Shown: positions 15,430-42,665 of the stretch, in pieces
Layout: each line of letters starts with the position of its first letter
Position numbering within the stretch: position 1 is the stretch's first letter
Source of the DNA: Acanthosoma haemorrhoidale
Lineage: Eukaryota; Arthropoda; Insecta; Hemiptera; Acanthosomatidae
Assembly (NCBI GenBank): GCA_930367205.1
Contig: OV884009.1
Span: 124,442,639-124,506,638, forward strand
Direction: 5' to 3'
DNA: 64,000 nucleotides
Position numbers and translations under genes: made by a program
Notes under the pieces: generated by a model
Seen by the model: the letters and a program-made list of their open reading frames with translations, nothing else
Database searches by the model: none
Told to the model about the DNA's origin: nothing

Positions 15430-15651
15430 TCACCTCCCCCCCTGCTTTCCCGACTTATCTAGGGCTATATCGATTTCCCCGTCTATAGTACAGGGCCCAC
15501 TCAAAGTGACCACTTTACATTGACATGGCTTAACCTGTGGTTTACACTTCGCTTTAAATAATACATCCAATTTATTCCTACTCACTAGCGTACAGGAACT
15601 CCCCGTATCCACTAAACATTTCCACCCTTTACAGAATTCTATAATAGGCAA
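15430..15651 (-). pseudogene. gypsy-2 aspartic protease
   Basis: Contains Cys-Leu-Val-Asp-Thr-Gly-Ser-Ser, the retropepsin active-site triad, at residues 12-19. It is followed by Val-Thr-Leu-Ser-Gly-Pro and Ile-Asp-Ile-Ala-Leu-Asp. The 73-residue frame covers the first two thirds of the domain, and the rest is out of frame between 15430 and 15280. It would cleave the Gag-Pol polyprotein. Confidence 0.75.
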
Positions 15652-15711
15652 CCTGTCCCACTTCTATACAACACTATTCACAAAAAGGTTGCCCCTCCCT
15701 TCACACAATTC

Positions 15712-16137
15712 TCATTCTTTACTCACCTGCTCTGTTCTCCGCTGCTTGTTTCTCCTTCCTGAGGTTCCTCTGCCCCCGGATTCGCTGTCCTCCGTCTCCG
15801 ATCCTGATGCCTCCGAAAATCTGGCCGATTCTGATGAAATCCTGCTTCTTCGCCACACTCTTTGAGCATTGATCTCCATAGGCTCGCCTCGGTCGTGCTC
15901 CCTGCGCCGTATATATGGGCATTGTCTGGCCATATGTCCCTCATTGTGACATTCGAAGCATCTTGTACGGGGGCACTGGGCTACCAAGTGCCCCGTCTTG
16001 CCACACTCATGGCACTTCCTTTCCTCTCTTCTCCCAATCTTCCTCTCCACAACTTGCCTTCTTTCTGTCTCTTCTCCCAAACTCTCCCTCTCTTCTTCTT
16101 CCCAGATCCTGTCTCCCTTTATTCCTTCCTGCCTCAT
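15712..16137 (-). pseudogene. gypsy-2 Gag nucleocapsid region
   Basis: 141 residues, highly charged. It has two complete knuckles of the form Cys-x2-Cys-x4-His-x4-Cys in tandem (Cys-His-Glu-Cys-Gly-Lys-Thr-Gly-His and Cys-Phe-Glu-Cys-His-Asn-Glu-Gly-His), then a Ser/Glu-rich tail. The same arrangement as gypsy-1, with both knuckles intact. Confidence 0.75.
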
Positions 16138-16349
16138 TTCTCCGATACACCACTCTACTTCATCCTGGTTCTATCTCTTCTCTCTTCCTCGTCCTGGGCA
16201 CTCGCGTCTACCATTTCCTGTGCACATTCCATAAATTATTTTTCTCTAGGTAGGCCATCCTTTCTCCCCGTATCCCTAGCTAACTGTACTTTCAGAACCG
16301 TGGTCATAAATATCATTCACGCTTCTACCGTACTTGTGTCCATTACTTC

Positions 16350-16932
16350 TCACAATTTCTCATTTATCTTATTCAGCTTCGCGAGAAGGCCTGCGGCGTA
16401 CTGGCCATTTGGTTTTTTCAATTCCCGGAACATTTGCAGCATATCCTCTTCTGGGGCCCATCGCCCCCCTCCATAGGCCTTTTTAAGTCTTTCCTTGATC
16501 ACCTGCCACGTAGTATCTTCGTCTGCTTGAATCAAATTCAATACACTTCTTCTCACCCGACAAGCCAGGGCCACCCGTAACCTTTTGGCATCCGACTCCT
16601 CTAGCAGGTCCGCTGCAACCTGGGCCTGAATGCTACTCATAATTCCGTCCCCGCCTTTGAGGAAATGGTTTAGTTTGCCTATCGCCATTAAATTTCTCTA
16701 GATCTGATATCTCTCTTCTTATGTCCTGGGCGTTCGCCTTCTTTAATTTCATTCTTTCTAAGTCGTTGGTCTCCTGTGCTATCCTATTCGCTTCCTGAGC
16801 CGCCAAGTCCGCCCGCGCCATTGCCAAAGTTGTCGATGGTAATGGTGGGATTCCGTGATTTACCTGTTCCGGCTGTTGGGACTCCAGAGTCAGCGTCGCT
16901 GGTCTAAGGACACTTTGTCCTTGTTCATTCAT
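16350..16932 (-). pseudogene. gypsy-2 Gag capsid region
   Basis: Starts at Met-Asn-Glu-Gln-Gly-Gln-Ser-Val-Leu-Arg-Pro, homologous to the start of the gypsy-1 Gag. It runs through an Ala-rich helix, Ile-Ser-Asp-Leu-Glu-Lys-Phe and, after a frameshift near 16690-16670, Lys-Leu-Asn-His-Phe-Leu-Lys-Gly-Gly-Asp and Arg-Leu-Lys-Lys-Ala-Tyr-Gly-Gly-Gly-Arg-Trp. Another break separates it from the nucleocapsid region (16349-16138). Confidence 0.7.
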
Positions 16933-27515: not shown

Positions 27516-27880
27516 ACTATTAGTAGTACATAAAGGCGGGTTGAGCATGAGTACGAAGGAGATGACCTTGAAGGGTGTCGTATCACGTTATCGTATGACC
27601 TTGTGGTCATTGACTGTCCTTACTAGGGCGAGGGGGTGTTGTCTTAGGACAAGGGGGGGGGTGTCCTTGAGAGGTGATATGAGGTGTTGAGTGTGTCAAG
27701 AACCGATAGATGGTAGATGTGGCAACTGCGCATTTGTAGATTTGTCAACAGCGCGGGGGGGGGGGGGGGGTTGTCCTCGTGATGTACAGGGGGGGTGTAT
27801 CCTTGTGACGCAATATGAGGTGTGGCCAGCTGATATCTTCTTTATCATTCTTAGTTCCGCCCAAGCCGCGGCTTTTTCTT
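27516..27880 (+). repeat. Polinton left terminal inverted repeat
   Basis: From ACTATTAGTAGTACATAAAG to about CCGCGGCTTTTTCTT. It matches the reverse complement of 41552-42665 apart from an insertion there. It contains G-runs (9 G ending at 27661; 16 G at 27755-27770) and short GTACAGGGGG/TCCTTGTGACG repeats, giving strong G/C strand asymmetry. Confidence 0.85.
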
Positions 27881-27974
27881 GGGGTCAGCTGTAGTATGGT
27901 AGTAATGTGGGTGGGGGGGGGGAAATGTGTCTTTAATCTCAGGGCGTCACTCTCGTTCTTTCAATTAGTTCAAG

Positions 27975-28325
27975 ATGTGTAAGCGAACAGGTTGGAGCCT
28001 GAGGTATGAGAATGATCGTCTGTCTACATTTGTTGGATGGTCTTCACCGGTGAGTGCCGTTAAGCTTGCATCAGCAGGATTTTATTATTTGAAAAAATCA
28101 GACCGAACAAGGTGTCCTTTTTGTGGAGTAATATTACACGAATGGTTGGTACATGATGACCCTTTTGTAGATCACAAGAAATGGGCTAAATATTGTCCGT
28201 TTATCGAGTACTTGGAACAACTAGAGAAGCTACCATTATTAATAATAGATGAAGTTGATACTAAAAAAGAACAGGAAAACTGCGTAAGAGGTTTAAACGT
28301 TTCATTCAAGAACTTTCGCATTTAA
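27975..28325 (+). CDS. BIR-domain protein (inhibitor-of-apoptosis type), Polinton-borne
   Basis: 116 residues, intact. One BIR domain spans about residues 12-80. It has Arg15, Thr18-Phe19 and Trp22 of the first helices, Leu31-Ala-x-Ala-Gly-Phe36-Tyr-Tyr, and zinc ligands Cys47-x2-Cys50-x16-His67-x6-Cys74, exactly the family spacing. It has Trp57 and the Asp61-Asp62-Pro63 turn that shapes the peptide groove. There is no RING finger, unlike cellular and baculovirus IAPs, so it cannot act as a ubiquitin ligase by itself. BIR domains bind caspases or IAP antagonists; a role in blocking host cell death is inferred. It begins about 95 bases inside the left terminal repeat and reads inward. The next 120 bases (A-rich) could encode a lost extension. 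Confidence 0.85.
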   Translation: MCKRTGWSLRYENDRLSTFVGWSSPVSAVKLASAGFYYLKKSDRTRCPFCGVILHEWLVHDDPFVDHKKWAKYCPFIEYLEQLEKLPLLIIDEVDTKKEQENCVRGLNVSFKNFRI

Positions 28326-28448
28326 AAAACCAAATAGTTTTATATGAAATAAAAAAAACGAGATAAATCAACTAGTGAAAAAAATAGAAAAACTTCATCT
28401 ATCCCCACTTCACTGTTAAATCTTTTAGTCTCGTTGAAGCCTAGCAAG

Positions 28449-28952
28449 ATGGAGGGTCCACGACGATTGGAACTAGTGACTGATTACCCCATCACTTGTA
28501 GTAAACTAGTCCGAGTCGGTCTTTGTGATTTTGTACCCACTGTCGCTGTCATCGACTAGATAACTACAGTGTATATGGATACAAAATAATGGAAATTCAT
28601 CGTCGACCAAGTTCCAAGGATGTTGCATCTTTTGCAAAGCAGGCCCAAGAAAGTGGAGGTCGAAGACCGAGTAGGATGTAAAATGTAAATTGCATATTTT
28701 CCAAGAGAGGGAGGAACAGGATCATGAAAATTGAACAGGTTGTTCTTTGTTTCATTCAAAATAAACGACTCACTGGACTTGATAACCAAGATGGCTGAAC
28801 TCTATAAGAAACATGAAGAAGGTGGAGAACCTGTGGAATCTACATCAATGGACTTTAATATTAATACTAATACCCTTTTTAATAATTTAAATGAACTCGA
28901 GAAAATGTGTAATAATACCCACATAAATTGTAATTTGAACTATATTCAATAA
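28449..28952 (+). pseudogene. Broken Polinton accessory gene of unknown function
   Basis: The first 36 codons are open and coding-like (Arg-Leu-Glu-Leu-Val-Thr-Asp-Tyr-Pro-Ile, then Val-Arg-Val-Gly-Leu-Cys-Asp-Phe). In-frame stops follow at 28557 and further on, with at least one frame change near 28715 where a Glu-Arg-Glu-Glu-Gln-Asp stretch continues in another frame. The last piece (28731-28952) is again open and acidic, with Met-Ala-Glu-Leu-Tyr-Lys-Lys-His. I believe this is a conserved protein in arthropod Polintons but cannot name a function. It follows the BIR gene on the same strand. Confidence 0.5.
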
Positions 28953-29134
28953 ATAATTGTTATGCCTATACATTTTTTTTATTATTATTATTATTGAACT
29001 TTTCCCTAAGTAAAAAGGAGAATAAAGGTAAATAAAAAAAAATATTTTAAAATTTGTATGGTTTATTTGAAATAAAACATGAATAAATTATAAATATAAT
29101 ATTACAATTAATAATTAATATATTCATTGAGGTG

Positions 29135-29311
29135 TTAGAGTCTTCGTTTCTGGATAAATTCCTCGTCCTCTCGCCAGTAGCGACATTGGTATGTGTAGTC
29201 GAAAAGGTACAAAAGTAATGATCGAGGTAAAACTCTCAATTCTTCAGTAGTTAAAGTTTCGATACCTTCCTCTCCTAAACGACGTATCGCCGACTCCATT
29301 CTATACGTCAT
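29135..29311 (-). CDS. Small hypothetical protein (58 aa), Polinton
   Basis: A short complete frame starting at ATG 29311, acidic and arginine-rich, with Leu-Thr-Thr-Glu-Glu-Leu-Arg-Val-Leu-Pro-Arg-Ser-Leu-Leu-Leu-Tyr-Leu in the middle and a charged end. Its start overlaps the end of the BIR-like frame upstream by about 10 bases in a different phase, as in compact viral gene pairs. No family recognised. It could equally be the frame-shifted end of the upstream gene. Confidence 0.4.
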   Translation of the reverse strand: MTYRMESAIRRLGEEGIETLTTEELRVLPRSLLLYLFDYTYQCRYWREDEEFIQKRRL

Positions 29312-29561
29312 ACTGATGCAGGTTTTTTACTAGGAGGTATTTATAAACTCTCCTCCTCCTCAAACCACAAACACTGAGGACTATTTTTTTTTTTTTATAG
29401 TACCTGAGAGGGTTGACTAATGATTTGCTGTCAAATACCAGTCCACAGTATACACACTTAACTCTATACTTGACTCCTCGAATAAATCCAGCATATGAAA
29501 GCAGATGATGAGGTGAGCCAATGTTTTTAAATGTTTGCCTTCTTATCTCTCCTTTTTTCAA
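29301..29561 (-). pseudogene. Degenerate BIR-like protein, Polinton
   Basis: 86 residues. Residues 7-41 follow the BIR pattern: Arg-x-Thr-Phe near 8-11, then Leu-Ser-Tyr-Ala-Gly-Phe26, then Val-Lys-Cys36-x2-Cys39-Gly. The Trp, His and last Cys that should follow are absent from this frame. A run of T at about 29385-29396 just beyond is a likely frameshift site, after which the sequence becomes Lys/Arg-rich. It is on the opposite strand to the intact BIR gene 1.2 kb away. The call rests on the first half only. Confidence 0.5.
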
Positions 29562-29614
29562 ATTTACAGCTTCAGAATTTTTTCCGACCCATGCAGCCAG
29601 ACGATGAGCTTAAT

Positions 29615-30031
29615 TTAATGAACAAACAAAGGGGAAGTGTTTAAATGAAAATGACATGTCATCTGGTCATTATCTAATTGTTTCAAGCCGAAATCATGAA
29701 GATCATAGACTGATTTATCAATGAGTTCTTCTATAAACTTGCACTTTTCCATTCCTTTTGCCCATAATATATCATAGTCTTCTGTAGCGTATATTAAGAA
29801 ATACTTCATATCTTCATATTGTACATCGCCATAGTCCCATTCTAATCCATGAATATGTTTTTTTACCCAAAGATTTGTTTTCGACTGACTCACTTCTTCG
29901 ACATCTTGAGGTGGTTCAAAAAACCAATGCCATGATGAATCATGGCTGATTGAGATGATGGATAGTTCTTTAACAATTAATAAGTTAGAAGCCGTGCAAT
30001 AGCCCTGAAAATCAATGACCGCCGAACGCAT
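29615..30031 (-). CDS. Conserved Polinton protein of unknown function
   Basis: 138 residues with an intact frame. It opens with Val-Ile-Asp-Phe-Gln-Gly-Tyr, then Ile-Val-Lys-Glu-Leu, then His-Trp-x-Phe-x-Pro-Pro, Gly-Leu-Glu-Trp-Asp-Tyr-Gly-Asp-Val, Tyr-Ala-Thr-Glu-Asp and a Cys-x-Phe-His-like end. I recall this motif series in many predicted arthropod proteins linked to Polintons. The Val-Ile-Asp start and conserved acidic residues would suit an RNase H-fold exonuclease, but this is inference. It lies just downstream of the capsid gene on the same strand. Confidence 0.6.
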   Translation of the reverse strand: MRSAVIDFQGYCTASNLLIVKELSIISISHDSSWHWFFEPPQDVEEVSQSKTNLWVKKHIHGLEWDYGDVQYEDMKYFLIYATEDYDILWAKGMEKCKFIEELIDKSVYDLHDFGLKQLDNDQMTCHFHLNTSPLFVH

Positions 30032-30106
30032 CTTATGGTTTACCGTCCTACGGTGAAGTGAGATTATTACACTCGATAGAATGGCTATATGTACACGTAG
30101 GCGGAA

Positions 30107-31351
30107 TCAGTACATTTTACGGACCAAACCCGTCCCCACTTTATATTCTACTATTTTATCATGAAGAATGAGACAGTATGCCTTGGTATTAGCAGGAAAG
30201 TTCTCACTCGCCTCTAGTTGAACGCGAATATCAATAATCGTACTCTTTATCGCGTCAGATTGTTTAGAAGAATCTATAACAACTATAGGTGCTAGGATCT
30301 CAAAATCGCATCGTGACAGCAGAGGTTGACAATGCCTATTGCCATAATAACTCGTTTGAAATTCTTTATACATTTCGTAGAGGAGAGCCACTTTTCCAAG
30401 CTCGAAATCTATATTCAAATCATCATAAGGATATTGCTCGCTATTCAGATAGAGTTTCAAAATTTTCAATTTGCAACTATCAAACTACCTGTTAATCTTT
30501 GCTAGCGTTTCTCATTCGATTTGTCTGGAATGCGATAATAACATACCGTGGCTTTTCTAAATTTTTCGATGCTTTTACAGTCCAGTTTTCTTGCTGTGAT
30601 GCAGGTAAATTAGGATATTCGTAAAGATCCCATGATCTGAATGGAATAGAGATGACCTTGTTTTTATCTATCATTTTTAACAACCTCAGCTGTTCTTGAT
30701 CAGAAACACGAACATGAGGCATTCTCCAAATCACTTTATCTAATTTTATTACAACATTATCGTCACCCTTTACGCAGTTCAAGTCAGTACTCGATCTGAT
30801 CAAAACGAGTTCTTGCTTAAGATTAATTAAAACTTTTTGATAGTCCTCACATATCCCTAAGAGAATATCCAGTGGCAAACACACTAAAAAAACCGTTTTT
30901 ATCTATTGAAAGAGTTTTGTCTGCACCCTGGGATAACCCATCCTGCATTTTCTAGACCTTTGACTTGATTAGGTGAAAATGACGCATGGCCTTTAAGCGT
31001 TGTAGTTATTCCTGGGTTTCTCACTCTATCAACTTCAATGCCATTCAATTCATATCTGATCTCATCAAAGAAAAACACAAACGCGTTATTAGTCAATTTT
31101 GAAGCAGTTCCAGCAGTACCATCCTTTTTTGAAATTCGTCCTTCTAGATAAACAAAACTTAATGAAGGAATCGTATAAACATCTTGTTGATGGATCGGTA
31201 TTCTGATTTCATCAGACTTGTTAAGGGTGTTCCCTGCATACGGTTGATGTGAATGATATTGAAATTGTGTAAGAGATTCTTCAAATTTTACGTCTGATGT
31301 AATATTTAGCATGTTATTAATTTTTTTCTTATTTTTAACCGAAAACCACAC
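30107..31351 (-). pseudogene. Polinton major capsid protein (double jelly-roll), frameshifted
   Basis: Three consecutive frames cover one protein: 31351-30899, 30884-30492 and 30469-30107. Family marks are Phe-Asp-Glu-Ile-Arg-Tyr-Glu-Leu-Asn-Gly-Ile-Glu in the first, Arg-Met-Pro-His-Val-Arg-Val-Ser-Asp and Phe-Arg-Ser-Trp-Asp-Leu-Tyr-Glu-Tyr-Pro in the second, and Leu-Tyr-Leu-Asn-Ser-Glu-Gln-Tyr-Pro-Tyr-Asp and Asn-Phe-Pro-Ala-Asn-Thr-Lys-Ala-Tyr in the third. Breaks at about 30890 (beside an A/T homopolymer) and about 30480 make it a pseudogene. Intact homologues form the pseudo-hexameric capsomers of the predicted Polinton virion. Confidence 0.85.
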
Positions 31352-31488
31352 TGTTTTAAAAAGTTAGCGTTTGCAGTTGTTAACGGTCTCGTCGATATAG
31401 GTTTACTAATTCTTAACTGGGTATGACACCTCCTTTTATAACGAGCTCCAACTCGCACACAACTCTCTCTGGTAAAATCAATCCCCAT
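31306..31488 (-). CDS. Small basic Polinton protein (possible core or minor capsid)
   Basis: 60 residues, very rich in Arg and Lys, with Cys-Val-Arg-Val-Gly-Ala-Arg-Tyr-Lys-Arg-Arg-Cys and a Leu-Thr-Thr-Ala-Asn-Ala-Asn-Phe-Leu-Lys-x-x-Gly-Phe end. It lies between the penton-like and capsid genes and overlaps each by a few bases to tens of bases in other frames. The position and charge suit a DNA-condensing or cement protein like the small basic proteins of adenoviruses. That role is inference. Confidence 0.5.
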   Translation of the reverse strand: MGIDFTRESCVRVGARYKRRCHTQLRISKPISTRPLTTANANFLKQCGFRLKIRKKLITC

Positions 31489-31987
31489 TCTTCTTCAAAT
31501 GTATTCTCAATGTAACAGTTTCTCCCCTAAAGTCAATAAGCTCGCCGTTCTGATCCACTAAGCGAACGGTAATATTGTCAACAGTCCTCACGTTAGTAGG
31601 AAAGTAAATGACAGGATTTGGGGTTTCTACTATTCTATATCCTTGTTCAACAGTCAGAAAGAATTGATGTATGCTATGATCTGGCTCCCCGTTTACGTAA
31701 GACCCTGATGCGATGTTACAATGTATCAAAATAGTGTTTACGGAAAGGATTTTTACAATTCCATCTGATTCAGTATAGCGGTTCACTGGATGTATCACAC
31801 GATTTGGACTATTAAAACCCAATAGTGGGCCAATGGAATGTGGCTTATCGGGAAAGTTGAAGTAAACCGGTTTAGTTGTTGTAAGTTCCACCTTTAAAGT
31901 ACTGTGATTTCCCCGCAGTACAAACCCAGCTCTCAGGTCTTGGTGTATAATTTCTTTGTAAAGAAAAGTATTTAGAGCTAGAATCAC
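31478..31987 (-). CDS. Polinton penton-like minor capsid protein
   Basis: 169 residues, uninterrupted. Conserved points are Ser-Ile-Gly-Pro-Leu-Leu-Gly-Phe-Asn-Ser, Ile-Leu-Ser-Val-Asn-Thr-Ile-Leu-Ile-His-Cys-Asn-Ile-x-x-Gly-Ser-Tyr-Val-Asn-Gly, and near the end Asn-Ile-Thr-Val-Arg-Leu-Val-Asp-Gln-Asn-Gly-Glu-Leu-Ile-Asp-Phe-Arg-Gly-Glu. The family has a single jelly-roll fold and is predicted to occupy the capsid vertices. The true protein may start upstream of this ATG, as the N-terminus looks short. Same strand and order as the capsid gene. Confidence 0.8.
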   Translation of the reverse strand: MILALNTFLYKEIIHQDLRAGFVLRGNHSTLKVELTTTKPVYFNFPDKPHSIGPLLGFNSPNRVIHPVNRYTESDGIVKILSVNTILIHCNIASGSYVNGEPDHSIHQFFLTVEQGYRIVETPNPVIYFPTNVRTVDNITVRLVDQNGELIDFRGETVTLRIHLKKNGD

Positions 31988-32024
31988 CTGTAAGCGCTAC
32001 TGTGTAGCTCGTGATTATGAATGA

Positions 32025-32372
32025 TCAAAATTTATGAGAAACGTCAGCTAAATACTTTAAGCAGAGATGTCCGCAAATCGGAGTATTCCACTTCTGATAA
32101 CGACGTCTGTTGTAAGTTATTTGTAAACCTTTAAAGTAATCAAGTAGCTGTAATGGTGGTTTCAAATTACCAAATGAATCAAAGTATTTCACAAGATTAT
32201 CTTTTTTTATACAACAAACCCAATGAGAACCAGGTTCTGAACTTGTATGCAAATTTACAATAGCTTTCTCATGCTTTTTTGGATATTTAGGGAGACTATC
32301 AATCATAAATACTCCACGAAAATTCTCAATATTCAAAACTTTAACTATATAATTTAATTTGAGATCGGTCAA
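32025..32372 (-). CDS. Polinton cysteine protease (adenain-type)
   Basis: 115 residues. The catalytic set is in place: His50-Trp51 in Gly-Ser-His-Trp, Asp65 in Tyr-Phe-Asp-Ser-Phe-Gly, Gln93 and Cys100 in Cys-Gly-His. The Gln and Cys are seven residues apart, as in adenovirus protease. The frame is open, though the end (Ser-His-Lys-Phe) is shorter than in relatives. It would mature capsid proteins. It may be the best-preserved structural-side enzyme in this element. Confidence 0.8.
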   Translation of the reverse strand: MTDLKLNYIVKVLNIENFRGVFMIDSLPKYPKKHEKAIVNLHTSSEPGSHWVCCIKKDNLVKYFDSFGNLKPPLQLLDYFKGLQITYNRRRYQKWNTPICGHLCLKYLADVSHKF

Positions 32373-32411
32373 CGGTTTATTCGGCAGTCATATTTTTCTC
32401 GGCCTTTTTTG

Positions 32412-32735
32412 TCAGTTTATAAACAGACCGTAACCATTCCTATATGGTTTCAAATAAAGTCCGTTACCAACTTTCTGACCTTCTATAGCTAAATTATGCC
32501 TCTTCTGCTCATCCAATTTTAGCTTGGCTTCTTTAGCCTCATTGATCGCTTTCACTACACTTGCAGCTCCTCCTACCAAAGAACCTACAGCGGAAAGTCC
32601 TGCCATCAAGGGTACAAGAAATTGGAGAAAGCCCCCTCCTTTGGCATCAGTAGAACTCTGGGTGGTAATGGTTTCATACAAGGTAATTAAACTGTCCAAA
32701 AAGGAGACAGAATATGGCCCATCTATTGAGGCCAT
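32412..32735 (-). CDS. Polinton minor virion protein with hydrophobic segment
   Basis: About 107 residues from the internal Met (Met-Ala-Ser-Ile-Asp-Gly). The longer upstream extension to 32855 runs into repeat DNA and is not trusted. A Gly/Ala-rich hydrophobic stretch (Phe-Leu-Val-Pro-Leu-Met-Ala-Gly-Leu ... Gly-Gly-Ala-Ala) precedes a Lys/Glu helix and a Gly-Leu-Tyr-Leu-Lys-Pro-Tyr end. This layout is common in arthropod Polintons beside the protease and recalls adenovirus membrane-active protein VI; function is inferred. Confidence 0.6.
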   Translation of the reverse strand: MASIDGPYSVSFLDSLITLYETITTQSSTDAKGGGFLQFLVPLMAGLSAVGSLVGGAASVVKAINEAKEAKLKLDEQKRHNLAIEGQKVGNGLYLKPYRNGYGLFIN

Positions 32736-32791
32736 AATAGAAGATGATGAAGAAGGAAAAGTGCGAACCTTCCTATCAAAACGATATATAT

Positions 32792-33543
32792 TGTTGTGAT
32801 ATTTTAAAATGATGATTTTTAATGGTGTTTGTTTAAATAATCTCGGAAAAAGCAAGCATTGAAGAACTTAATAACGATCCGTAGTTCATATCTACGAAAG
32901 TACGAACGTTTTATTGTCGTCATATTAATTATTAATATTTATAATAAAAATAATATCATAACTAATGTAAACATTTATTTTATAAACTACGTAAATTAAG
33001 CAAAGTATAAATATTCAAAACAACTGGCATTAAATAACGAGTTGAAAGTCAAGAAGGCAGCGGAGGGATGCAGATATAAATAAGCCGACATAGACCGAAA
33101 GGTCTCTCATTCGTTCATCAGAAAGCAGACAGAGGAGGACCCACGCTAGCGGCCTCGCAGTGCACGAGGTCTGACTTTCACTTTTCACCAGATGCGACAA
33201 CAAAGACGTCTGGAACCACGCGCGGCAGATTAGAACAAGTATGCTGATCCGAACCACACGAAGACATCAACACAAAGAACACTGGCCAGTATAATACGTA
33301 ATTTTAATCTTAACAGTAATTTTTAGTACGTACGTAATTTATTTGTATATCAATTTTTATATCTTAATGTGTGTAAATAAAAACAATATTCCTTTTGCCA
33401 GAAGTTTCCTATATAATTATTAACAGAACCCTGATATAACGTTAAAGTTATAAATATAAAGTTTTTTTTAAATTATATGAAAAATAGATAATTAAAATAT
33501 TAATTAATAAATAGCAAATAGCAAATATTAGAATAATATATAT
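32792..33543 (+). repeat. LTR-like direct repeat, copy A, inside the Polinton
   Basis: Begins TGTTGTGATATTTTAA and is similar over its full length, by eye about four fifths of bases, to 40690-41472 in the same orientation. It contains a TATA box (TATAAATA at 33075), a start-like TCATTCG some 35 bases on, and AATAAA at 33376. This is a U3-R-U5-like plan. It ends in a TA-rich stretch without a clear CA terminus. Probably a solo LTR or related non-autonomous element; not a Polinton gene. Confidence 0.6.
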
Positions 33544-33794
33544 GCGTTCACTGAGGAAGAATTAGCAAGCTATAGAGGTACAGTATATTTAAATATATAA
33601 TAAATATAGTATTTCTTTTAATTAGGTAAGTGATATTCTCGTTTTTAGGAGAGCTGAAATTTTAATACCTCGGAAAAAAGAAAAATGCATATGACATTAA
33701 ATTCGAATAGTTGATGCATTTTATTTAGGAGGTTTTTGATATTTTGTTATTATTTTGGTTTTGGCTTTGTATATTTTAGTGTTAAGGAGTAAAA

Positions 33795-34451
33795 ATGAAT
33801 AGTAAAAGCAGCGCAAATAATTATTTATGTGATCAATGTGGATTATTAGTAGCCAATAGAAGACACAGATGTAAATGGTTGCTTTTCTATTGTCAAGGCT
33901 GTGGGAAATTAATTAATAGAAAGTTTAATTTTGAACGTCATAAATTAACTTGTAAAGTTGCTAGTGGGATTAGTAGGAATGATACACCTAACGCGAGCAC
34001 AATGGAGATTCCTAATAAAAAAAGAGAATATAGTATGTTTTGCAGGCAGATGCGTGAGAAGGCGATTGCACAAGAAAACGGCATAATTAGAGCTTCGTTA
34101 GGAAATGCGGTTGAGGATATTTACATTCCTAACGATGATAAAAAATTATTAGATAACGAATTTTTAAACAATAAAAAAGAAGTTTTAGTAAATTTACTAA
34201 ATTGTTATGTTGACAAATGGAAAACTTTTAAAATAAATATAATGTTAGAATTCACATACATTAAGAAAAATGAAAATACTATTAGTGAAAGAACAGATTT
34301 TAATTTTAAATCGAAAGTTAGTACGATAGATGTTTCTATAAACCTCAAAAATTACATTGAAACAATTTTTGAAAAAAATTTAGAGGAACAGAAAAAAAAG
34401 TTCCGGTTGGATATATACCTCTGCAAACTATATCTGCCTACATTTAACTAA
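33795..34451 (+). pseudogene. Polinton DNA polymerase B, N-terminal zinc-finger part
   Basis: 218 residues from ATG. It starts with Cys-x2-Cys ... His and a second Cys-x2-Cys ... His-x4-Cys finger (Cys-Gln-Gly-Cys-Gly-Lys, His-Lys-Leu-Thr-Cys), as Polinton polymerases often do. A long region without motifs follows. It ends prematurely (Leu-Pro-Thr-Phe-Asn, stop); family sequence continues at once in another frame (Gly-Gly-Ser-Gln-Tyr-Ile-Glu-Leu-Pro), showing a frameshift at about 34420-34455. Confidence 0.75.
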
Positions 34452-35811
34452 ATATAAACCTTTTGGAGGATCTCAATATATTGAATTACCTAAAAAAATA
34501 CGGGACAAACGTTGTGTTATAAATGTAAGAAATAATAATAATGATTGCTTCCGTTAAGATATACTTAGTGATAATATTAGATCAAATGACTTTAATGCAT
34601 ACAAAAATATTCAAACTCCATATTCCTTTGATTCTATATCGTTCCTGACTCCAATTAAGGATATCAAACGATTTGAAAATTTAAATAATCTGTCTATAAA
34701 TGTTTATGGCTTAGATGAGAAAAATAATGTGTATCCGATTAGAATTAGTAAAAAGGAAAATTATGATAAAATGTTTGATTTATTGTTTTTACAAAATGGG
34801 GAAAATTTTCACTATTGCTTGATCACAAATCTTTCACGATTAGTAAGTTCTCAAATATCTTTGCACCAATGTGCATATAGCATCTGTCGTAGATGCCTGT
34901 CCGTATTTCCAAAGACGTATGTAAACAAGTATGGGAAAAATAAAATGGTGATGAGCGAAAGTGTGAACATGAATTATTTTGTCGTAATCATAAACCAATT
35001 CGATCTGATTTTCCAAAAGAAGATAAAATTGAATTTAAACATGTGGAATATACACAACCTATCCCAATTGTAGTTTATGCAGAGATTGAATCTCTTTTAA
35101 TACCAATTTCGGGGCCTGTTCCTAATCTATCAACATCTTGGAACAAAGCTGTAGTCTGACATGTTTGATTTGAAACCGTTTGTTTATACAGGGGAAAACT
35201 GTATGCTAGCGTTTTTAGAAAAACTCGAATCTATAGTTGTTGAAGCGGATAAAATATACGCTAATCCTCTTCCGATGGAAGAAATGAGGGAAAATAAAAT
35301 ATTTTATTCTGCTAAAGACTGCATATTATGTCCATACCCCTTAGACGGACTCGATCGTGTGCGTCATCACTGTCACTTAACAGGAAAATTTATTGGACCA
35401 GCACATAAAGCATGTAATTTAAGAGCAAGAAAGCCTGATTTTATACCTGTTTTTATGCACAACTTACAAGGCTATGATTCTCATTTTATAATCCCTTTCT
35501 TGGGCCGCTGTGAAAATGTTTGCGTAATTCCTAGTAATTCTGAAAAATATATAAGTTTCAGTATAAAATTTAAAGGATGTAGAACAAAAATACGATTTGT
35601 TGACTCGTTTAAATTTCTATCATCGAGTTTGGTTACATTAGTGAACAATTTACAAAATCAACCAAAATCAATTAATGAAATATTTCCAAATATGGCTAGT
35701 ATTATTAATGATGAAAACAAAATTAAATTACTTACAAGGAAAGGTGTATTTCCATACAATTATTTTAATTCATTTGAATGTCTAAATGAAACTCAACTAA
35801 CTACCTTCTAA
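34452..35811 (+). pseudogene. Polinton DNA polymerase B, middle region (exonuclease side)
   Basis: Readable pieces: Ile-Arg-Asp-Lys-Arg-Cys-Val-Ile-Asn-Val and Asn-Asp-Cys-Phe-Arg then a TAA at about 34556. The frame 34560-35073 has Ser-Ile-Asn-Val-Tyr-Gly-Leu-Asp and His-Tyr-Cys-Leu-Ile-Thr-Asn-Leu-Ser-Arg-Leu. The frame 35161-35811 has a His-His-Cys-His-Leu-Thr-Gly-x-Phe-x-Gly-x-Ala-His finger, Met-His-Asn-Leu-Gln-Gly-Tyr-Asp-Ser-His-Phe, and Phe-Val-Asp-Ser-Phe-Lys-Phe-Leu-Ser-Ser-Ser-Leu of the 3'-5' exonuclease. At least three stops or shifts break it. Confidence 0.75.
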
Positions 35812-35878
35812 AAAATAATTTTTTAATGAATTATCAAAAAAATCCATTAGCGATGTAGACTATGAGCATGCAAAAAGT

Positions 35879-37426
35879 GTGTGGGAAACGTTTAAAATCA
35901 AAACATTAAAAGATTATGTAGAATTATATGTAAAAACCGATGTAATTCTGTTGTGCGAAGTTTTTGAAACCTTCCGCCTTCTCTGTCAACAAATTTATCA
36001 ATTGGATCCTGCATGGTTTTTTACTTTACCTCAGTTATCTTGGAATGCAATGTTGAAATATACTCAAATAAAATTAGATGTAATAAAAGATATTGATATA
36101 GTACAGTTTTTTGAAAAGGGAATAAGGGGAGATATTTGCCAAGTCGTTTCCCGCTATGCCAAAGCTAACAATAAATATTTAAGTGAGTACGATTCTACTA
36201 AACCCAGTAATTATTCATTATATGTAGATGTTAACAATCTTTATGGTTATGCCATGAACCTTCCCCTGCCATATGCCGAATTTGAATGGACTGATGAAAA
36301 AGTAAATGTATTAGATCTGGAAAACAATTCAGAAACCGGTTATATGCTAGATTTTGATATTGAATACCCCGTAGAAGTTCATGATAATCATTCTTAACTA
36401 CCTTTTTTACCTGAAAAAAATAATCCACCTAATACAAAAACTGTTAAACTATTAACGACTTTGTTACCCAAAACACGTTATATAGCACATTATGTGAATT
36501 TAAAACAAGCTTTACAACTTGGAGTAAAAATTTCAAAAATTCACAGAGTATTAAAGTTTAAACAAAAGAATTGGTTGGCACCATACATAGAAATTAATTC
36601 AAAGATGAGGGCATCTGCAAAAAATACATTGGAGTCAGATTTTTACAAATTGATGAATAACAGTTGCTTTGGCAAATTTATGGAGAACGTGCGTAACAGA
36701 ATCGATTTCAAAATAGTAACCAATGAAAAATCATTATTTCGTCAAGTAAACAAACCAAATTTTAAAGGCAGGATTATATTTGCAGATAACGTAACAGCGG
36801 TCCAGTTGGAAAAAGACAGTATTATTTTTGATAAACCGTTGTATGTAGGATTCTCCGTGCTAGAATTGAGCAAAGTTTTGATGTATCATTACCACTATAA
36901 TGTTTTCTTGAAAAAATATGGTATAGAAAATGTTACCTTATGCTATACAGACACCGATTCATTTTTATACAATATTAGGACAGAAGATATGTATTCTGAT
37001 ATATCCGGAGAGTTACAAAAATATTTTGATACAAGCAATTTTCCTACTTCTCATTTCTGTTATTCTGCAAAAAACAAAAAAGTAGTTGGTCTGTTGAAAG
37101 ATGAAACCTTTGGAGATCCTATAGTGGAATTTGTCGGGTTGAGACCTAAAATGTATTCTTACATAACAAACAAAGATATAACGGTTAAAAAGTCAAAGGG
37201 AATAAAAAAATCAGCTGTTAACGATTTTACTTTTAACGATTACTTAAACACACTTAAAGAAAGTAAATGTGTATATTCTTCGTTTTATATAATTCAATCT
37301 AAAAAACATGACGTTCAAACCTCACTAATAAATAAAAAGTCATTGTGCTCATTTGATGACAAAAGGCATACATTAAGTGATGGAGTGCTAACACTCCCTT
37401 ATGGTCACTATAGCCTTGATGAATAA
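35879..37426 (+). pseudogene. Polinton DNA polymerase B, polymerase domain
   Basis: Two frames. 35879-36397 ends the exonuclease (Tyr-Val-Lys-Thr-Asp-Val-Ile-Leu-Leu) and carries palm motif A, Tyr-Val-Asp-Val-Asn-Asn-Leu-Tyr-Gly. After a break at about 36390-36460, 36461-37426 holds motif B (Leu-Met-Asn-Asn-Ser-Cys-Phe-Gly-Lys) and motif C (Tyr-Thr-Asp-Thr-Asp-Ser). The end includes Gly-Leu-Arg-Pro-Lys-Met-Tyr-Ser. Catalytic aspartates are all present although the gene is split. The intact enzyme would copy the linear element by protein priming. Confidence 0.85.
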
Positions 37427-37667
37427 AAAAACAACCGTTAAATTTAATTTGTATTGTAAATGAAAAAAGGATTTTAAATCAATTTAATGTCTAATTGTAG
37501 TATTATTATTAATTGCTTAGAATAAGCATAGGTTAAAAAGAACAACAATTTGTAAGTACTAGATTTATTTTTTAAATGTAGAGTAACAATAAATATAATG
37601 TATACAGTTTTTGTAAAAAAATAATAAATGTCTATTATAAGAGTAAGTGTTTGTTTCTTTCACAACA

Positions 37668-38593
37668 TTATGCAATATCCTTACTGTCAATCCAGCTACG
37701 TTCTTCTAATCCCAACCACTTTACATACAATTTATTTCCTTTTCTTTTTAAAACCTTTTCTACAAGGTATATATTTGGATATTTAACTTTTTGCAGCTCT
37801 TCTTCATAGAATGCACCACTAATCGGTTGTCCTTTCAGATCTTCCAGTAAATAAGTGTAAGGGTATGTCTTTTGAATCTTGACTATCTTAAAAATTTCAC
37901 TTGACCAATTTGAAAATATGGATTTTTGTTTAGATATTCTGACAAAATCATCTTCTTCAAATTTCTGCTTTCGTACTACTTTTGATATAGTCAATGAAGA
38001 ATAGACATTATTTTTCAAATATTTCTCTACTTTTTTATGGTGAGCATCAATTGGACTCATACCTATAGTCCTATGGAATGATGAATTATTCTCTTGTAAA
38101 ATTTGAGGTAGGACATCTAAAAATTTGTAATTTCCTTGCATGCTGAAGGCTTCCACATATTTCCTTTTAATGTTCTATTAAACCTTTCTACAATGGAAGC
38201 TTTCATATCAGAAAAAGTGGAATAATTATTAACAGAGTATTGTTTCATTAAAGATTTAAACTTGGAATTGTGAAATTCTTTTCCCTGATCACTTTGAATA
38301 TTTTTCGGAGTTTGTCTACTCGAACGAAGCACACTCTCCATTGCTTTAGTCACATTGTTTGCTGATTTAAGCTTTAGAGGCATGGCCCAAGCATATTTGG
38401 AAAAATAGTCGATAACTGTCAATAAATATTTGTACCCTTTGTTTTCTCGAGAATAAGGTATCATCTCTACTAGATCTATCTGCCACAAGTCATTTATTCC
38501 TTTCAAAACTGTCTTTCGCCTGGGGTATTTTTTGCGTGCTGGCTTATGTAATTCATTTACAACAGTTCTTTTTATGTTTGATAATGAATCCAT
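37668..38593 (-). pseudogene. Polinton integrase with chromodomain, frameshifted
   Basis: 38593-38117 contains the retroviral-type core: Trp-Gln-Ile-Asp40-Leu-Val, Ile-Gln-Ser-Asp102-Gln-Gly, and Ile-Val-Glu136-Arg-Phe-Asn-Arg. The overlapping frame 38156-37668 continues with His-Arg-Thr-Ile-Gly-Met-Ser-Pro and ends in a chromodomain (Tyr-Leu-Val-Glu-Lys-Val-Leu ... Tyr-Val-Lys-Trp-Leu-Gly ... Ser-Trp). One frameshift near 38150 separates them. No zinc-binding N-terminus is seen. The chromodomain would steer insertion to particular histone marks. Confidence 0.85.
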
Positions 38594-38799
38594 CTATAAC
38601 TTCTCTTTGAGTATTTTGTTAAGATAACCGAGTGTGAGCGCATCAGATTCCTTCTCAGGCTCACCTACGTTTGATATTCTCTTACCAAGAGAGTCAACCA
38701 ACTAAAGTTAAAGCAACGACCAATTCTTTGGTGACAACATCAATCCGAACTTGTTTATCGTCATGATTATACTGAAACTGATTATAAAAATATGTACAT

Positions 38800-39946
38800 T
38801 AATATACTATATTTTCTTCTCGCAGCTCTTCAATTATCGATTCTATTTAGTTTTGATGACCTTCATGCCCTGCATAACTTGAAGACATTAACAGCCTAAG
38901 ACGATCGACTAGTTCGTTTGGGTCGTTCCAATACTCATACAGAGGTTTATTGGCTCTCATAAGACCAGTTCCCCGTGAAGTTAGCCTCCTTAGTTCCCCA
39001 GGGAGAACGGAGTGAAGTTAGCCTGCTCGAAGCTGATGATGATGTGGAGGAAGGGGGGCGAGGTTTTAAAGTTTGTGGTGGAAATAACTTTGATATGATA
39101 TTTCTATATTTCTCAGACCTGTTTCAGAATACTCCCTGTTCCTCACTATAGCCTTTTTTATGAGCATTGGTTGAGAGTAAAATATTATTATAATTTTCCA
39201 AGTCTGACTCTCTGTAATCTTTAGGATTTTTTAAGTAGAGTAGCTCCAGCAATCCTGGTGTTCCTTTATAAACCACATCGTTAATAGACATATCTCACTG
39301 TTTGCGAAAAGCTGAACATCAGTCGAGTCACCGATGGCTAATCCCCCAGAAGGCATGACTCTAATGCCGCAACGAGTCATGTGTCTTATCACCTTTCAAC
39401 ATCTTATCCAAGTATTCTCTCTGTAGATTTCCAAATGCGGCGAGGTGCTCTTTAAATTCTGCTTCACCCTTTGGAGTTTGAGCATAATCTTTAAATTTTT
39501 CTGACAGTGGATCATCTGTCACATACTTGCCCTCATCTACTTCTGGTGATATGAACTCATGAACAGGAACCGTTAAGTGAGATAATGGCGTTTGCACAGT
39601 ACTAGTTTTTGTATCATCGGATGAAACTGATATAGCTCTTTTGTAGTGAGACATTGTTTTTGGCAATAATGTTGATTTCCTGTAAATACTAGTAGACTCG
39701 TATCTCGCTTTTATCAGGTGATTTGTCCCAAACATTAGTATCTCTCCTTTTTACTTTTCTTGGTGTCACTGCGGGGGTGGTCTGGTACAACTTTACTGAT
39801 TGTTTAATGTCTTCTAGTGGATGGAGCACGGGTGTAAAAAATTCTTGTCGACCTTTTTCCACATCCTGGAGAGTACGCTTCAATGACCGAAATTTGTTTT
39901 TCAAAATCTCACGAGTGACTTTTGGGTCCATGATTGTTAATGACAA
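38800..39946 (-). pseudogene. Conserved Polinton protein of unknown function, broken
   Basis: Pieces in order are 39946-39689 (Met-Asp-Pro then a charged coiled-coil-like start), 39735-39361 (acidic, with Lys-Phe-Lys-Asp-Tyr and Leu-Gln-Arg-Glu-Tyr-Leu-Asp-Lys-Met) and, after several stops, about 38945-38800 with Glu-Tyr-Trp-Asn-Asp-Pro-Asn-Glu-Leu-Val-Asp-Arg-Leu-Arg-Leu-Leu and Ile-Ile-Glu-Glu-Leu-Arg-Glu. I recognise that last motif as the conserved C-terminus of an arthropod Polinton protein. Its function is not known to me. It lies between ATPase and integrase. Confidence 0.65.
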
Positions 39947-40593
39947 TTACTACCACGACTGCTCTTTATATATATATCTACAATAAATGTAAACATTCCT
40001 TTTCGAAAATGTCCATTATTCAGCTCCCTACTCTTGTCAATTACAAGGTAATAAAAAGGCTCTTTCCAACATAATGAACACATCTCTTTAAAAAGTGTGA
40101 AACTTAAATCCGGAGTGCTTACATGCTCCTCGTAAATATGTTTCAAATTTAATTCATCTTGAGGAAATACTATTAAAAAGTTAATGTTACATCTGATAAG
40201 GTGTCTTGGGATACAAACATAACTTTGTGTTAAATAAAAACAATCAAGGTTCATATGGCGACCATAACTAAAGTATCATTTAATTACATCTTGATTTTCC
40301 ATAGTGACGTCATCGAATATACAGACCGAATTGGATTCAACTTCCTGAGGCTATTCATTTGCATCTTCAAATTCATATAATCCTATTTCAGGAACAAGAT
40401 TTATGACACCTTTTAAATACTGGTATTTAGGCTGATGTAATGTTTTTCCGAAAAGATAAACATTTTTAAATTTTAAACCATTTGGATTTGATACAAGTGC
40501 AATAATAATATTAGTCTTTCCACAACCGCTAGGTCCGCAAATTGATGCTCGAATGGTGTTCGGTAATAATGCACTGTCTCCCTTCTGAATCAA
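39937..40593 (-). pseudogene. Polinton genome-packaging ATPase (FtsK/HerA type), broken
   Basis: 40593-40351 carries the Walker A loop Gly20-Pro-Ser-Gly-Cys-Gly-Lys-Thr27. After a shift near 40345, Cys-Ile-Phe-Asp-Asp-Val (Walker B) is readable at about 40325-40308. An in-frame TGA precedes 40254-39937, which continues with Leu-Thr-Gln-Ser-Tyr and Arg-Cys-Asn-Ile-Asn-Phe. The true start is upstream, as 40593 is not an ATG. In relatives the enzyme pumps DNA into the capsid. Confidence 0.8.
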
Positions 40594-40640
40594 CTTTAAC
40601 TGGTGAAAAGTTGATAATGGAAAAACGTTGCTCTTGTTTG

Positions 40641-40689
40641 ACTAATTTCATTCTGAATACAAACGACAGCATTATGCTTCAGTATGTAT
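40641..40689 (+). repeat. Left arm of a 49-bp inverted repeat
   Basis: Pairs with 41466-41514 (reverse complement) with about four mismatches in 49. It contains, on the minus strand, an ATGAAATTAGT that could be a gene start leading toward the ATPase. The arms enclose repeat copy B. Confidence 0.75.
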
Positions 40690-41472
40690 TGTTATGATAT
40701 TTTAATGTTATGATTTTTGATAGTGTTTTTATTAATAAACTCAAAATTAGCGAGCGTTGACGCACGTAATAACGATCCGTGGTTCATGCCTATGAAAGTA
40801 TGAACGTTGTTATTGCCGTTATATTAACTATTAATATTTATAATAAAAATAATATCAATAATTAATATAAACATTTCATTTATAAACTTCAAAACAAGCA
40901 AAGTATAAATATCGGAGACAACTGGCATTGAATAAACTATTAAACTATCAATAAGGCAGCGGAGAGATGCGAGATATATATGAATGCCGAGAAGCACGCA
41001 GACTCTTTCATCAGGAACTGGTAGAGGAGGGACTCCAGCCCAGGTAGCGACCCACGCTACAGCCTCGTAGTGCACGAGGAGATCAGCCCTTTTCACTTTC
41101 AACCGCACGAGAACAAAGGACGTATTATACGAGAACATATTCCGGATCATGCGAGGCAGATTAGAGGAAGACAATCCGAATCACGCAATAGAAGACGACC
41201 ATCGAAGATATCAACACAAAGAAACACTGGCCAGTATAAATACGTAAATTTAGTTTTAACAGTGTTATTTATTACGTACGTATTTTATTTGTATATCAAT
41301 TTTTAAATCAATGTGTGTAAATAAAACCATTATTCCTTTTCCCAGAAGTTGCCTATAATTTTATTAACAGAACCTTGAGATAACGTAAAAGTTAAATATA
41401 AAGTTATAAATTATATGAAAAAATATATAATTAAAATATATATAAATAATAAATATTTGAATAATATATATA
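40690..41472 (+). repeat. LTR-like direct repeat, copy B
   Basis: Begins TGTTATGATATTTTAA; counterpart of 32792-33543. It keeps the GGCAGCGGAG(A/G)GATGC block, CCCACGCTA, GTGCACGAGG, ACACTGGCCAGTATA, and GTGTGTAAATAAAA (poly(A) signal). It sits at the apex of a 49-bp inverted repeat. Minus-strand frames across both copies are by-products of the repeat, not genes. Confidence 0.6.
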
Positions 41473-41551: not shown

Positions 41552-42665
41552 AGAAAAAGCCGCGGCTTGGGCGGGGTGTGATGACTAATAAGATATCAGC
41601 TGGCCACACCTCATATTGCGTCACAAGGATACACCCCCCTCTGTACGTCACAAGGACACACCCCCTGTACGTCACGAGGACACCCCCCCCCCCTGCGCTG
41701 TTGACAAATCTACAAATGCGCTGTTCGGGCCCTTAGGCAGTAAATAAGTTTTTATTAAACTTAATTTTTTTGTTTGAGAGGATTTTTTTTATGATCGTAA
41801 TTATTTTAAATTATAAATTTATTTTCTTTCCTTATCTGATTGTTTCGGCTGGAGACCATTAGTATGTAAATATTGTATACATCAACAGACAGAGGAAACA
41901 GTTCGAAGGATTATACAGCTCGAGGAAGTAAATAAACACGTCTTTGCGTATTAGAGGACAAAGCTTTAGGAGGCCTGAGCCTGTTTTAAGTCAGTGATGA
42001 AGATAACTCCATACCGGACGGTTCCCCTGCGAACACGAAGTCGCTGTTTCTACAACTGAACTTCTCGGCCTATCTGCCTTTATCTCTCCATGCACATCGC
42101 CGACCTGCGGTTGACTATCCGAAGATCACCGTCCTGCGGCTGCTATCCGAACATCCAGCGTATCGTGACTATAAACTTTTTCGTAATTTTTATACGTTAA
42201 TTATACTAACAATTATTTATACTAATATTCAGGCCTGGTTAAGTTGCTGATCAGTAATTTTTTTTTGTTTTGTTTTTTAATAAAATGAATTGTTATTTCT
42301 TTAATATTTTTGACTTTGTTTATTGTATATGCCTTATTGTTGGCAAGTTTGTGAGCTAGCCGACACAATCAAACCTCTAGCTTCTCAAGACGTAACCGGC
42401 GCAATTTTCTGGCGTTTGGGGACTTCTTAATTTTTAAGAGCCCTAGCGCAAACATGCGCAGTTGCCACATCTACCATCTATCGGTTCTTGACACACTCAA
42501 CACCTTATATCACCTCTCAAGGACGCCCCCCCTCGTCCTTAGACGACATCCCCTCGCCCTAGTAAGGATAATCAATGACCTCAAGGTCATAGGATAACGT
42601 GATACGACAACCTTCAAGGTCATCTCCTTCGTACTCGTGCTCAACCCGCCTTTATGTACTACTGT
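41552..42665 (-). repeat. Polinton right terminal inverted repeat, interrupted
   Basis: Mirrors the left repeat from AAAAAGCCGCGGCTTGGGCGG outward to CCCGCCTTTATGTACTACTGT. It is split at 41721/42455 by a 733-bp insertion. A short minisatellite of GTACGTCACAAGGACACACC-like units is longer here than in the left repeat. Confidence 0.85.
41722..42454. mobile_element. Probable solo LTR inside the Polinton terminal repeat
   Basis: Starts TGTTCGGGCC, ends GCGCAAACA, and is flanked by TGCGC on both sides (41717-41721, 42455-42459). Removing it and one TGCGC restores the sequence found in the left terminal repeat. TG...CA ends and a 5-bp duplication are LTR-retrotransposon marks. One oddity: CTGGCGTTTGGGGACTT near 42400 looks like a primer-binding region inside the insert, so it might instead be a truncated LTR element. 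No coding sequence. Confidence 0.7.

What the first reader, a model, noticed from the sequence alone, without database searches (positions are those of the whole stretch)
27975..28325. Intact BIR (IAP-like) gene in a Polinton whose replication genes are broken
The BIR frame has every zinc ligand and fold residue in place (Cys47, Cys50, His67, Cys74 at exact family spacing), while polymerase, integrase, ATPase and major capsid genes all carry stops or shifts. That contrast suggests either chance, because the gene is short, or retention by selection, for instance host domestication of a small RING-less anti-apoptotic protein. Virus-borne BIR proteins are known from baculoviruses and other insect DNA viruses. 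A minimal single-BIR gene beside a Polinton terminal repeat is notable.
Basis: partly seen in the sequence, partly recalled or inferred. Interest (0 to 1): 0.8.

Follow-up and report, generated by a model that had tools for sequence, protein, structure and literature searches.

The report
Polinton-carried BIR genes, decaying copy here
A virus-like mobile element present many times in this genome carries its own small BIR gene (the domain of cell-death inhibitors), and sibling elements have a second BIR fused to another gene; the copy in this window looks like an ordinary decaying one rather than a gene that the host has adopted.

Summary
The BIR frame at 27975-28325 is real (Pfam BIR 66.4 bits; four zinc ligands in place) and lies just inside the left terminal repeat of a 15.1-kb Polinton, 27522-42663. 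The contrast 'intact BIR, broken replication genes' is not special: 15 longer stop-to-stop frames occur in the same element, and simulated neutral decay leaves the BIR frame open in 0.21-0.59 of runs.

The window's own genome holds at least 150 BIR matches. In 84 of 150 a capsid-gene match lies downstream on the opposite strand (median 2.67 kb), against 0 in three control arrangements. The BIR is therefore a resident Polinton gene. Between sub-families dN/dS is 0.10-0.23; changes unique to one copy fit neutrality (29 silent, 92 replacement, 10 stop). Against this reading: the window copy has 0 private changes in its BIR core but 7 of 445 in the flank (p=0.051).

Unexpected: sibling elements carry a second, divergent BIR fused to another conserved Polinton gene, broken in this copy. 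Of 80 copies read, 21 end in a CGFC or CGCC cysteine tail, which this copy lacks. Domestication is not supported, though not excluded.

The parts
27522..27733 (+). left terminal inverted repeat, outer arm (weaker repeat similarity continues to about 27880)
   Evidence: 198 of 212 columns identical to the reverse complement of 42454-42663; 12 substitutions in 210 sites
27975..28325 (+). stand-alone BIR gene, 116 codons; BIR core residues 15-77; C-terminal end unlike the other copies read
   Evidence: Pfam BIR 66.4 bits; 150 matches in own genome, itself included; close relatives P0001-P0003; Foldseek hits to XIAP/cIAP1 BIR3
28330..28955 (+). remains of a second plus-strand Polinton gene, open for 232 codons in sibling L109:85-780, broken here
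   Evidence: sibling frame shares stretches with window pieces 28353-28556 and 28728-28949, compared by eye
29304..29609 (-). broken 3' part of the N-domain/BIR fusion gene; second BIR-like domain, zinc His position is Tyr here (read by eye)
   Evidence: tblastn to sibling L109 70.7% identity E=2.9e-36; Pfam BIR 14.6 bits here, below cut-off, 26.2 bits in the sibling
29618..30106 (-). N-terminal domain of the same fusion gene, function unknown, found beside the capsid gene in three Polinton families of this genome
   Evidence: tblastn to L109-L111, L093-L098 and L101-L106
30107..31351 (-). major capsid protein, double jelly-roll, in three frame pieces
   Evidence: Pfam DJR-like_dom profile positions 2-56, 71-200, 213-316 in three pieces; 150 matches to the middle piece in own genome
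31478..31996 (-). open 172-codon frame, probable penton (by position; not recognised by Pfam, NCBIfam or PDB searches)
32025..32387 (-). open 120-codon frame, probable adenovirus-type protease (motif recalled; no database hit, single-sequence model poor)
33786..37426 (+). DNA polymerase B region in five frame pieces
   Evidence: Pfam DNA_pol_B_2 in two pieces; none in 33795-34451 or 36398-37426; the other joins by eye
37668..38593 (-). integrase region in two overlapping frames
   Evidence: Pfam rve 56.9 bits in 38117-38593; second frame by eye
39937..40641 (-). probable packaging ATPase region (Walker A piece 40354-40641; rest by eye)
   Evidence: weak P-loop matches, all below cut-off
42454..42663 (-). 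right terminal inverted repeat; its inner part (about 41553-41732) is displaced by roughly 0.7 kb of other DNA

Best explanation
The BIR gene is a resident gene of a recently amplified Polinton (Maverick) family. In propagating elements selection keeps it, most likely because it blocks the infected cell's death or immune signalling: a single BIR without RING that binds N-terminal IAP-binding peptides of caspases or of their regulators, in some lineages perhaps held at membranes by a C-terminal cysteine (CaaX-like or -CC) tail. Sibling elements encode a second, divergent BIR as the C-terminal domain of another Polinton protein. Once inserted, copies decay neutrally; the window copy is such a fossil, whose BIR core is open mainly because it is short. 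Shown: presence, position, copy number, purifying selection between lineages, neutral proportions of copy-specific changes, second BIR in siblings. Inferred: caspase or immune target, lipid anchor, the state of this one copy.
For: Own-genome search: 150 BIR matches scored of 272 candidates. Fixed arrangement: 84 of 150 BIR places (window included) have a capsid-protein match 0-9 kb downstream on the opposite strand, median 2674 bp, against 0 for downstream same strand, upstream opposite and upstream same; 15 of 40 TIR places have a BIR within 900 bp inward on the same strand, against 0 in controls (from the capped lists). dN/dS between sub-families 0.10-0.23 in ten pairs at dS 0.55-1.74, partly saturated. 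Changes unique to one of 62 distinct close copies: 29 silent, 92 replacement, 10 stop (22/70/8%) against neutral 24/70/6%; changes shared by two or more: 24, 41, 3. P(open) for 116 codons at 3% decay 0.59 without and 0.21 with frameshifts at an assumed tenth of substitutions; decay from the TIR arms 3% per arm, 95% range 1.5-5%. BIR fold. Zinc ligands plus W at His+3, a type II feature (against PMC8917759, passages). Fusion: Pfam BIR 26.2, 27.9, 25.8, 26.0 bits in four of five sibling proteins tested, the fifth 15.1; dN/dS of its BIR part 0.17 (two pairs; a third not computable).
Against: No expression, binding or infection data. Window-private changes: 0 of 261 in the BIR core, 7 of 445 in the flank (Fisher p=0.051), while its terminal branch over gene plus flank is 0.039, longer than 63 of the other 79: a lean towards constraint in this copy. 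The residue before the zinc His is Asp, not the Glu/Gln of conserved type II BIRs. 29 of 80 copies read end in -HENS, -KENS, -QENS or -KENI without the cysteine tail, so the tail seems not needed for amplification. The copies read were the best scoring, hence biased to intact ones. With frameshifts the simulated chance of an open frame is only 0.21 (0.08 at 5% decay).
Confidence: 0.7

Rival explanations
1. The host has kept this particular BIR copy as a small anti-apoptotic gene while the rest of the Polinton decays.
For: BIR core open with all ligands; 0 private changes in 261 core bases against 7 of 445 in the flank (Fisher p=0.051) although the terminal branch is long (0.039).
Against: 14 of 62 distinct copies, this one included, have no private core change; copy-specific changes overall fit neutrality; 15 longer frames of the element are open too; C-terminus found in no other copy read.
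Confidence: 0.08
2. The BIR is a host IAP fragment that happened to lie at, or be picked up by, this one insertion.
For: BIR is a common animal domain (general knowledge).
Against: 84 of 150 BIR places share the capsid-gene arrangement and 15 of 40 TIR places have the BIR inside.
Confidence: 0.01
3. The gene belongs to the Polinton, but its BIR is not anti-apoptotic: it serves cell division (survivin-like) or virion assembly, as the fusion partner's place next to the capsid gene might suggest.
For: A single BIR without RING is also the build of survivin (phmmer to survivin chains, best E 1.4e-10); the second BIR is fused to a gene next to the capsid gene.
Against: Better sequence matches are NAIP and cIAP1 BIRs; the best structure matches are mostly XIAP and cIAP1 BIR3 chains; most named viral matches are called IAPs.
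Confidence: 0.2

Closest known systems
Baculovirus, entomopoxvirus, nudivirus and iridovirus IAP proteins
   Same: virus-carried BIR domain; 34 structure matches at E 1e-3 or better; a few listed ones are as short (82-101 aa)
   Different: most listed ones are over 150 aa; here a 103-116 aa gene in a 15-kb Polinton, with a second BIR fused to another gene in siblings
cIAP1 BIR3 / XIAP BIR3
   Same: BIR fold, zinc ligands, W at His+3; TM-score about 0.5 by query length
   Different: 33-42% and 32-39% identity in the rows listed; no RING found; cysteine tail in 21 of 80 copies
Polinton/Maverick (polintovirus) elements, PMC4028283
   Same: polymerase B, integrase, double jelly-roll capsid protein, about 15 kb
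   Different: the passages seen of that paper name no BIR gene and the word apoptosis does not occur in it; here a BIR gene, and a second one in siblings
Survivin (BIRC5)
   Same: single BIR, no RING
   Different: weaker match than NAIP/cIAP1; last predicted helix ends at residue 85 and the tail is of low confidence

Membership tests
BIR domain (Pfam PF00653) | profile score above curated cut-off | tested here: met
   66.4 bits against 22.9; relatives P0001-P0003 61.8-71.1 bits
BIR domain (Pfam PF00653) | zinc ligands C-x2-C-x16-H-x6-C | tested here: met
   Cys47, Cys50, His67, Cys74
Type II (peptide-binding) BIR | W or H at His+3 | tested here: met
   Trp70 (rule from PMC8917759, passages)
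Type II (peptide-binding) BIR | E or Q before the zinc His | tested here: not met
   Asp66, also acidic
Type II (peptide-binding) BIR | binds IAP-binding-motif peptides | not testable with these tools
   needs a binding assay
IAP protein (anti-apoptotic) | inhibits cell death | not testable with these tools
   no functional data
IAP E3 ligase | C-terminal RING | tested here: not met
   BIR is the only family above its cut-off in the Pfam scan
Polinton/Maverick | polymerase B, integrase, double jelly-roll capsid protein | tested here: met
   Pfam DNA_pol_B_2, rve, DJR-like_dom above cut-off
Polinton/Maverick | adenovirus-type protease and penton | tested here: inconclusive
   open frames at the expected place, no database hit, poor model
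Polinton/Maverick | terminal inverted repeats (recalled feature) | tested here: met
   212-column outer arm, 93%
Polinton/Maverick | 6-bp target duplication (recalled feature) | tested here: inconclusive
   AATGTA on both sides but 6 and 2 bases away from the ends; a 6-mer is shared by about 2% of random pairs of 12-mers of the window
Domesticated host gene | purifying selection after insertion | tested here: inconclusive
   copies read fit neutrality; window core 0 of 261 against flank 7 of 445, p=0.051

The most novel reading that the evidence does not exclude
This Polinton family is a double-BIR virus. It carries a stand-alone BIR, in several lineages with a lipid-anchor-like cysteine tail, and a second BIR welded to a conserved Polinton gene next to the capsid gene; the second is shared with at least one other Polinton family of the same genome. 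Both are kept by selection as counter-defence against host cell death or immune signalling, which would mark Polintons as viruses that fight their host's defences.
Probability: 0.5. Interest if true: 0.75.

Novelty: new variant of a known kind. Interest (0 to 1): 0.52.

Why it matters
Whether Polintons are transposons or real viruses is an open question; the argument so far rests on their capsid genes (PMC4028283, passages). A selected BIR gene, and a second one fused to a conserved gene, is a different kind of evidence: a transposon confined to the germ line should gain little from blocking cell death, an infecting virus much. This genome, with near-identical copies (nine share one BIR core), makes the idea testable by expression and binding assays.

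Tried and rejected
Searches that gave nothing: viral contigs for the BIR alone and as alignment, for a capsid piece and for a polymerase piece. NCBIfam gave no BIR hit. My BIR profiles found no second BIR in the window's own frames of 20 codons or more; the broken fused one shows only weakly in Pfam and by comparison with siblings. Protease identity: PDB search and single-sequence model uninformative. An early reading, that three database relatives ending in -CC meant this copy had lost a family-wide tail, was softened: of 80 copies read, ends are HENS 17, shortened 16, CGFC 12, CGCC 9, KENS 7, QENS 3, KENI 2, SCCC 2, CGLL 2, NSRY 2 and eight singles, the window among them. A comparison with host IAP genes (own genome searched with P0014) did not complete. 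The host was not identified.

Literature: ten searches. In their listings, and in passages found in PMC11071296, PMC8363768, PMC8905726, PMC11071308, PMC4061559, PMC5803895, PMC4028283 and PMC8917759, I saw no Polinton with a BIR gene; no paper was read whole. The adintovirus paper of Starrett et al. 2021 is not held, so prior mention there cannot be excluded. The protease motif, the prenylation signals and the Polinton repeat and duplication rules are recalled, not taken from a call.

Changed on re-checking: the chance of an open frame is given as 0.21-0.59 instead of 'about half', and the long terminal branch is now told; domestication therefore goes from 0.06 to 0.08 and the main reading from 0.72 to 0.70.

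Full report
What is there. The window lies at G000:C6:124442639-124506638 of an 865.6-Mb genome in 72 contigs; the host was not identified. A Polinton spans 27522-42663: its outer terminal arms (27522-27733 and 42454-42663) are identical in 198 of 212 columns, with 12 substitutions in 210 sites; the inner part of the right arm is displaced by roughly 0.7 kb of other DNA. Inside the left arm, 27975-28325 on the plus strand encodes 116 residues with a Pfam BIR domain (66.4 bits, cut-off 22.9), ligands Cys47, Cys50, His67 and Cys74, and sequence similarity to NAIP, cIAP1 and XIAP BIRs. The AlphaFold model (mean pLDDT 69; residues 1-7 and 92-116 under 50) matches XIAP and cIAP1 BIR3 chains in the PDB (best E 3.4e-5, TM-score about 0.5 by query length) and insect-, crustacean- and mollusc-virus IAPs (best E 2.9e-6).

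State of the other genes. The capsid protein is in three frame pieces that cover consecutive parts of one profile. The polymerase region is in five frames, two of them with a Pfam match; the integrase region is in two overlapping frames, one with a match; for the ATPase only a weak P-loop piece was recognised (the joins are read by eye). But the contrast is weak: of 18 stop-to-stop frames of 110 codons or more in the element, 15 (120, 125, 129, 136, 151, 154, 158, 163, 168, 171, 172, 192, 218, 221 and 342 codons) are longer than the BIR's 118. A simulation with the decay seen in the terminal arms (3% per arm; 95% range 1.5-5%) leaves 116 codons open in 0.59 of runs without frameshifts and in 0.21 if frameshifts come at an assumed tenth of the substitution rate; at 1.5% the figures are 0.76 and 0.44, at 5% 0.42 and 0.08.

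Sibling copies. The own genome has 150 scored BIR matches out of 272 candidates, E up to 2.5e-35, 150 matches to a capsid piece out of 309 candidates and 50 terminal-repeat matches with 40 of 247 candidates scored. Eighty-four of 150 BIR places, the window's included, have a capsid match 0-9 kb downstream on the opposite strand (median 2674 bp; 69 of 84 between 2000 and 3300), and none of 150 has one in the three control arrangements; 15 of 40 terminal-repeat places have a BIR within 900 bp inward on the same strand, none in the controls. The lists are capped, so these are lower bounds. The BIR is thus a standing gene of this Polinton family, at the same place just inside the left repeat.

Selection. 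I read 79 sibling copies plus the window (taken from the higher-scoring matches, so biased to intact copies). Over codons 1-87, 66 of 80 have neither stop nor frameshift (two of the 14 others, L054 and L085, still read on to -CGCC, so their frameshift marks may be alignment faults). Between sub-families dN/dS is 0.10-0.23 in ten pairs at dS 0.55-1.74, partly saturated; for two closer pairs it is 0.34 (window against L024) and 0.29 (L015 against L024), from few changes. Among 71 close copies (62 distinct), changes unique to one copy are 29 silent, 92 replacement and 10 stop, 22/70/8%; the neutral expectation is 24/70/6% at a transition weight of 2. Changes shared by two or more copies are 24, 41 and 3. 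Selection thus acts while the element propagates and seems to cease after insertion.

The window copy. Every base of its 261-base core occurs in at least one other copy; its tail has 2 private changes in 90 and its 3' flank 7 in 445; core against flank gives Fisher p=0.051. Its terminal branch in a tree of gene plus flank is 0.039, longer than those of 63 of the other 79 copies; the sister is L015 with support 0.69. So the core looks quieter than its surroundings. Against making much of this: 14 of 62 distinct copies, the window among them, have no private core change. In the pooled siblings the rates are 131 of 16956 (core) and 385 of 27815 (flank), but 164 of the 385 come from two outliers, L021 and L082. 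I read this as no evidence for domestication, with one weak hint left open.

The tail. Three database relatives (90, 82 and 64% identical; contigs of 1.2-1.5 kb from one source) end in -CGCC, -CGCC and -FGCC; none of the other 23 BIR hits ends in -CC. In the genome, of 80 copies, 12 end -CGFC, 9 -CGCC, 2 -CGLL, 2 -SCCC, one -CRCC and one -YGCC; 29 end -HENS, -KENS, -QENS or -KENI; 16 are shortened; the rest are other ends, the window's among them. The CGxC, CGLL and -CC ends look like prenylation signals (recalled motif, untested); an anchored BIR is a hypothesis. Lineages without the tail have also multiplied.

A second BIR. A weak BIR-like scrap on the minus strand at 29304-29609 (14.6 bits, below cut-off) turned out to be the end of a gene that is open in siblings: a 234-248-residue protein made of a conserved N-domain of unknown function and a C-terminal BIR-like domain. 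Pfam gives 26.2 (L109), 27.9 (L111), 25.8 (L096) and 26.0 (L093) bits, all above the cut-off; a fifth sibling, L110, gives 15.1, its frame ending early. The PDB search gives NAIP at 1.7e-8 for the whole chain, from three weak stretches. The domain has C-x2-C and H-x6-C with 15 or 17 residues between instead of 16, and lacks the type II residues (read). The own genome holds 151 matches from 150 scored of 384 candidates; 32 are full length at 96% or more, 29 of them without a stop. In another family (capsid 58-59% identical) all six examined loci, L093-L098, match the fusion by my profile, two of which were also tested and passed in Pfam. Six loci of a third family (capsid 50-52%, L101-L106) match the N-domain, and no BIR was found there; L099, L100 and L107 gave no match, and L108 matches the N-domain only. 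dN/dS between L109 and L111 is 0.15 for the N-domain and 0.17 for the BIR-like part. In the window the gene is broken and the histidine position reads tyrosine.

How it probably works. A single BIR with zinc ligands, Trp at His+3 (type II feature; the Glu/Gln before His is Asp here; rule from PMC8917759, passages) and no RING would act by binding: masking IAP-binding peptides of caspases or of their antagonists, or immune adaptors, in the infected cell. That step is inferred. The fused BIR may tether its partner to the same pathway, or have lost peptide binding and serve structure.

Comparison with print. Virus-borne IAPs are well known (one search lists many). In ten literature searches and the passages seen I found no Polinton with a BIR gene, but the library lacks most subscription papers and the adintovirus paper of 2021. 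I file this as a new variant of a known kind: viral BIR proteins, in a carrier where I found none described, with a fusion I have not seen described.

Noticed in passing
G000 loci, e.g. C17:72826-73056, C25:55571-55801: Twenty of the 150 listed BIR matches cover only residues 33-109 (64-codon frame) with near-identical scores; in several (such as these two) a truncated capsid match with one TAG lies nearby: possibly an amplified defective derivative of the element.
   Followed up: no
G000, contig C6 and the small contigs: 45 of 95 BIR places on the six large contigs lie on C6, which holds 15% of their length (p about 2e-13), and 55 of 150 lie on the other 66 contigs with 22 Mb in all: accumulation on a sex or low-recombination chromosome and in unplaced repeats is possible.
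   Followed up: partly
48068-56418 and 63264-64000: Large satellite array with spacings in steps of about 79 bases and a longer period of about 3.43 kb.
   Followed up: no
33293-33456 and 41239-41400: Two 84%-identical stretches inside the Polinton, perhaps copies of a small mobile element inserted twice.
   Followed up: no
28330-28955; L109:85-780: A second plus-strand gene of about 210-230 codons between the BIR and the fusion gene is open in siblings L109 and L111, has no Pfam family above cut-off in L109 and is broken here.
   Followed up: partly
6713-16697 and 46676-62821: Long retrotransposon-like frames (reverse transcriptase, integrase, CCHC gag by eye) on both sides of the Polinton.
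   Followed up: no
L101-L106: A third Polinton family whose capsid piece is 50-52% identical; its N-domain gene ends without a BIR-like part (frames seen for L101, L102, L104), which may show the state before the fusion.
   Followed up: partly
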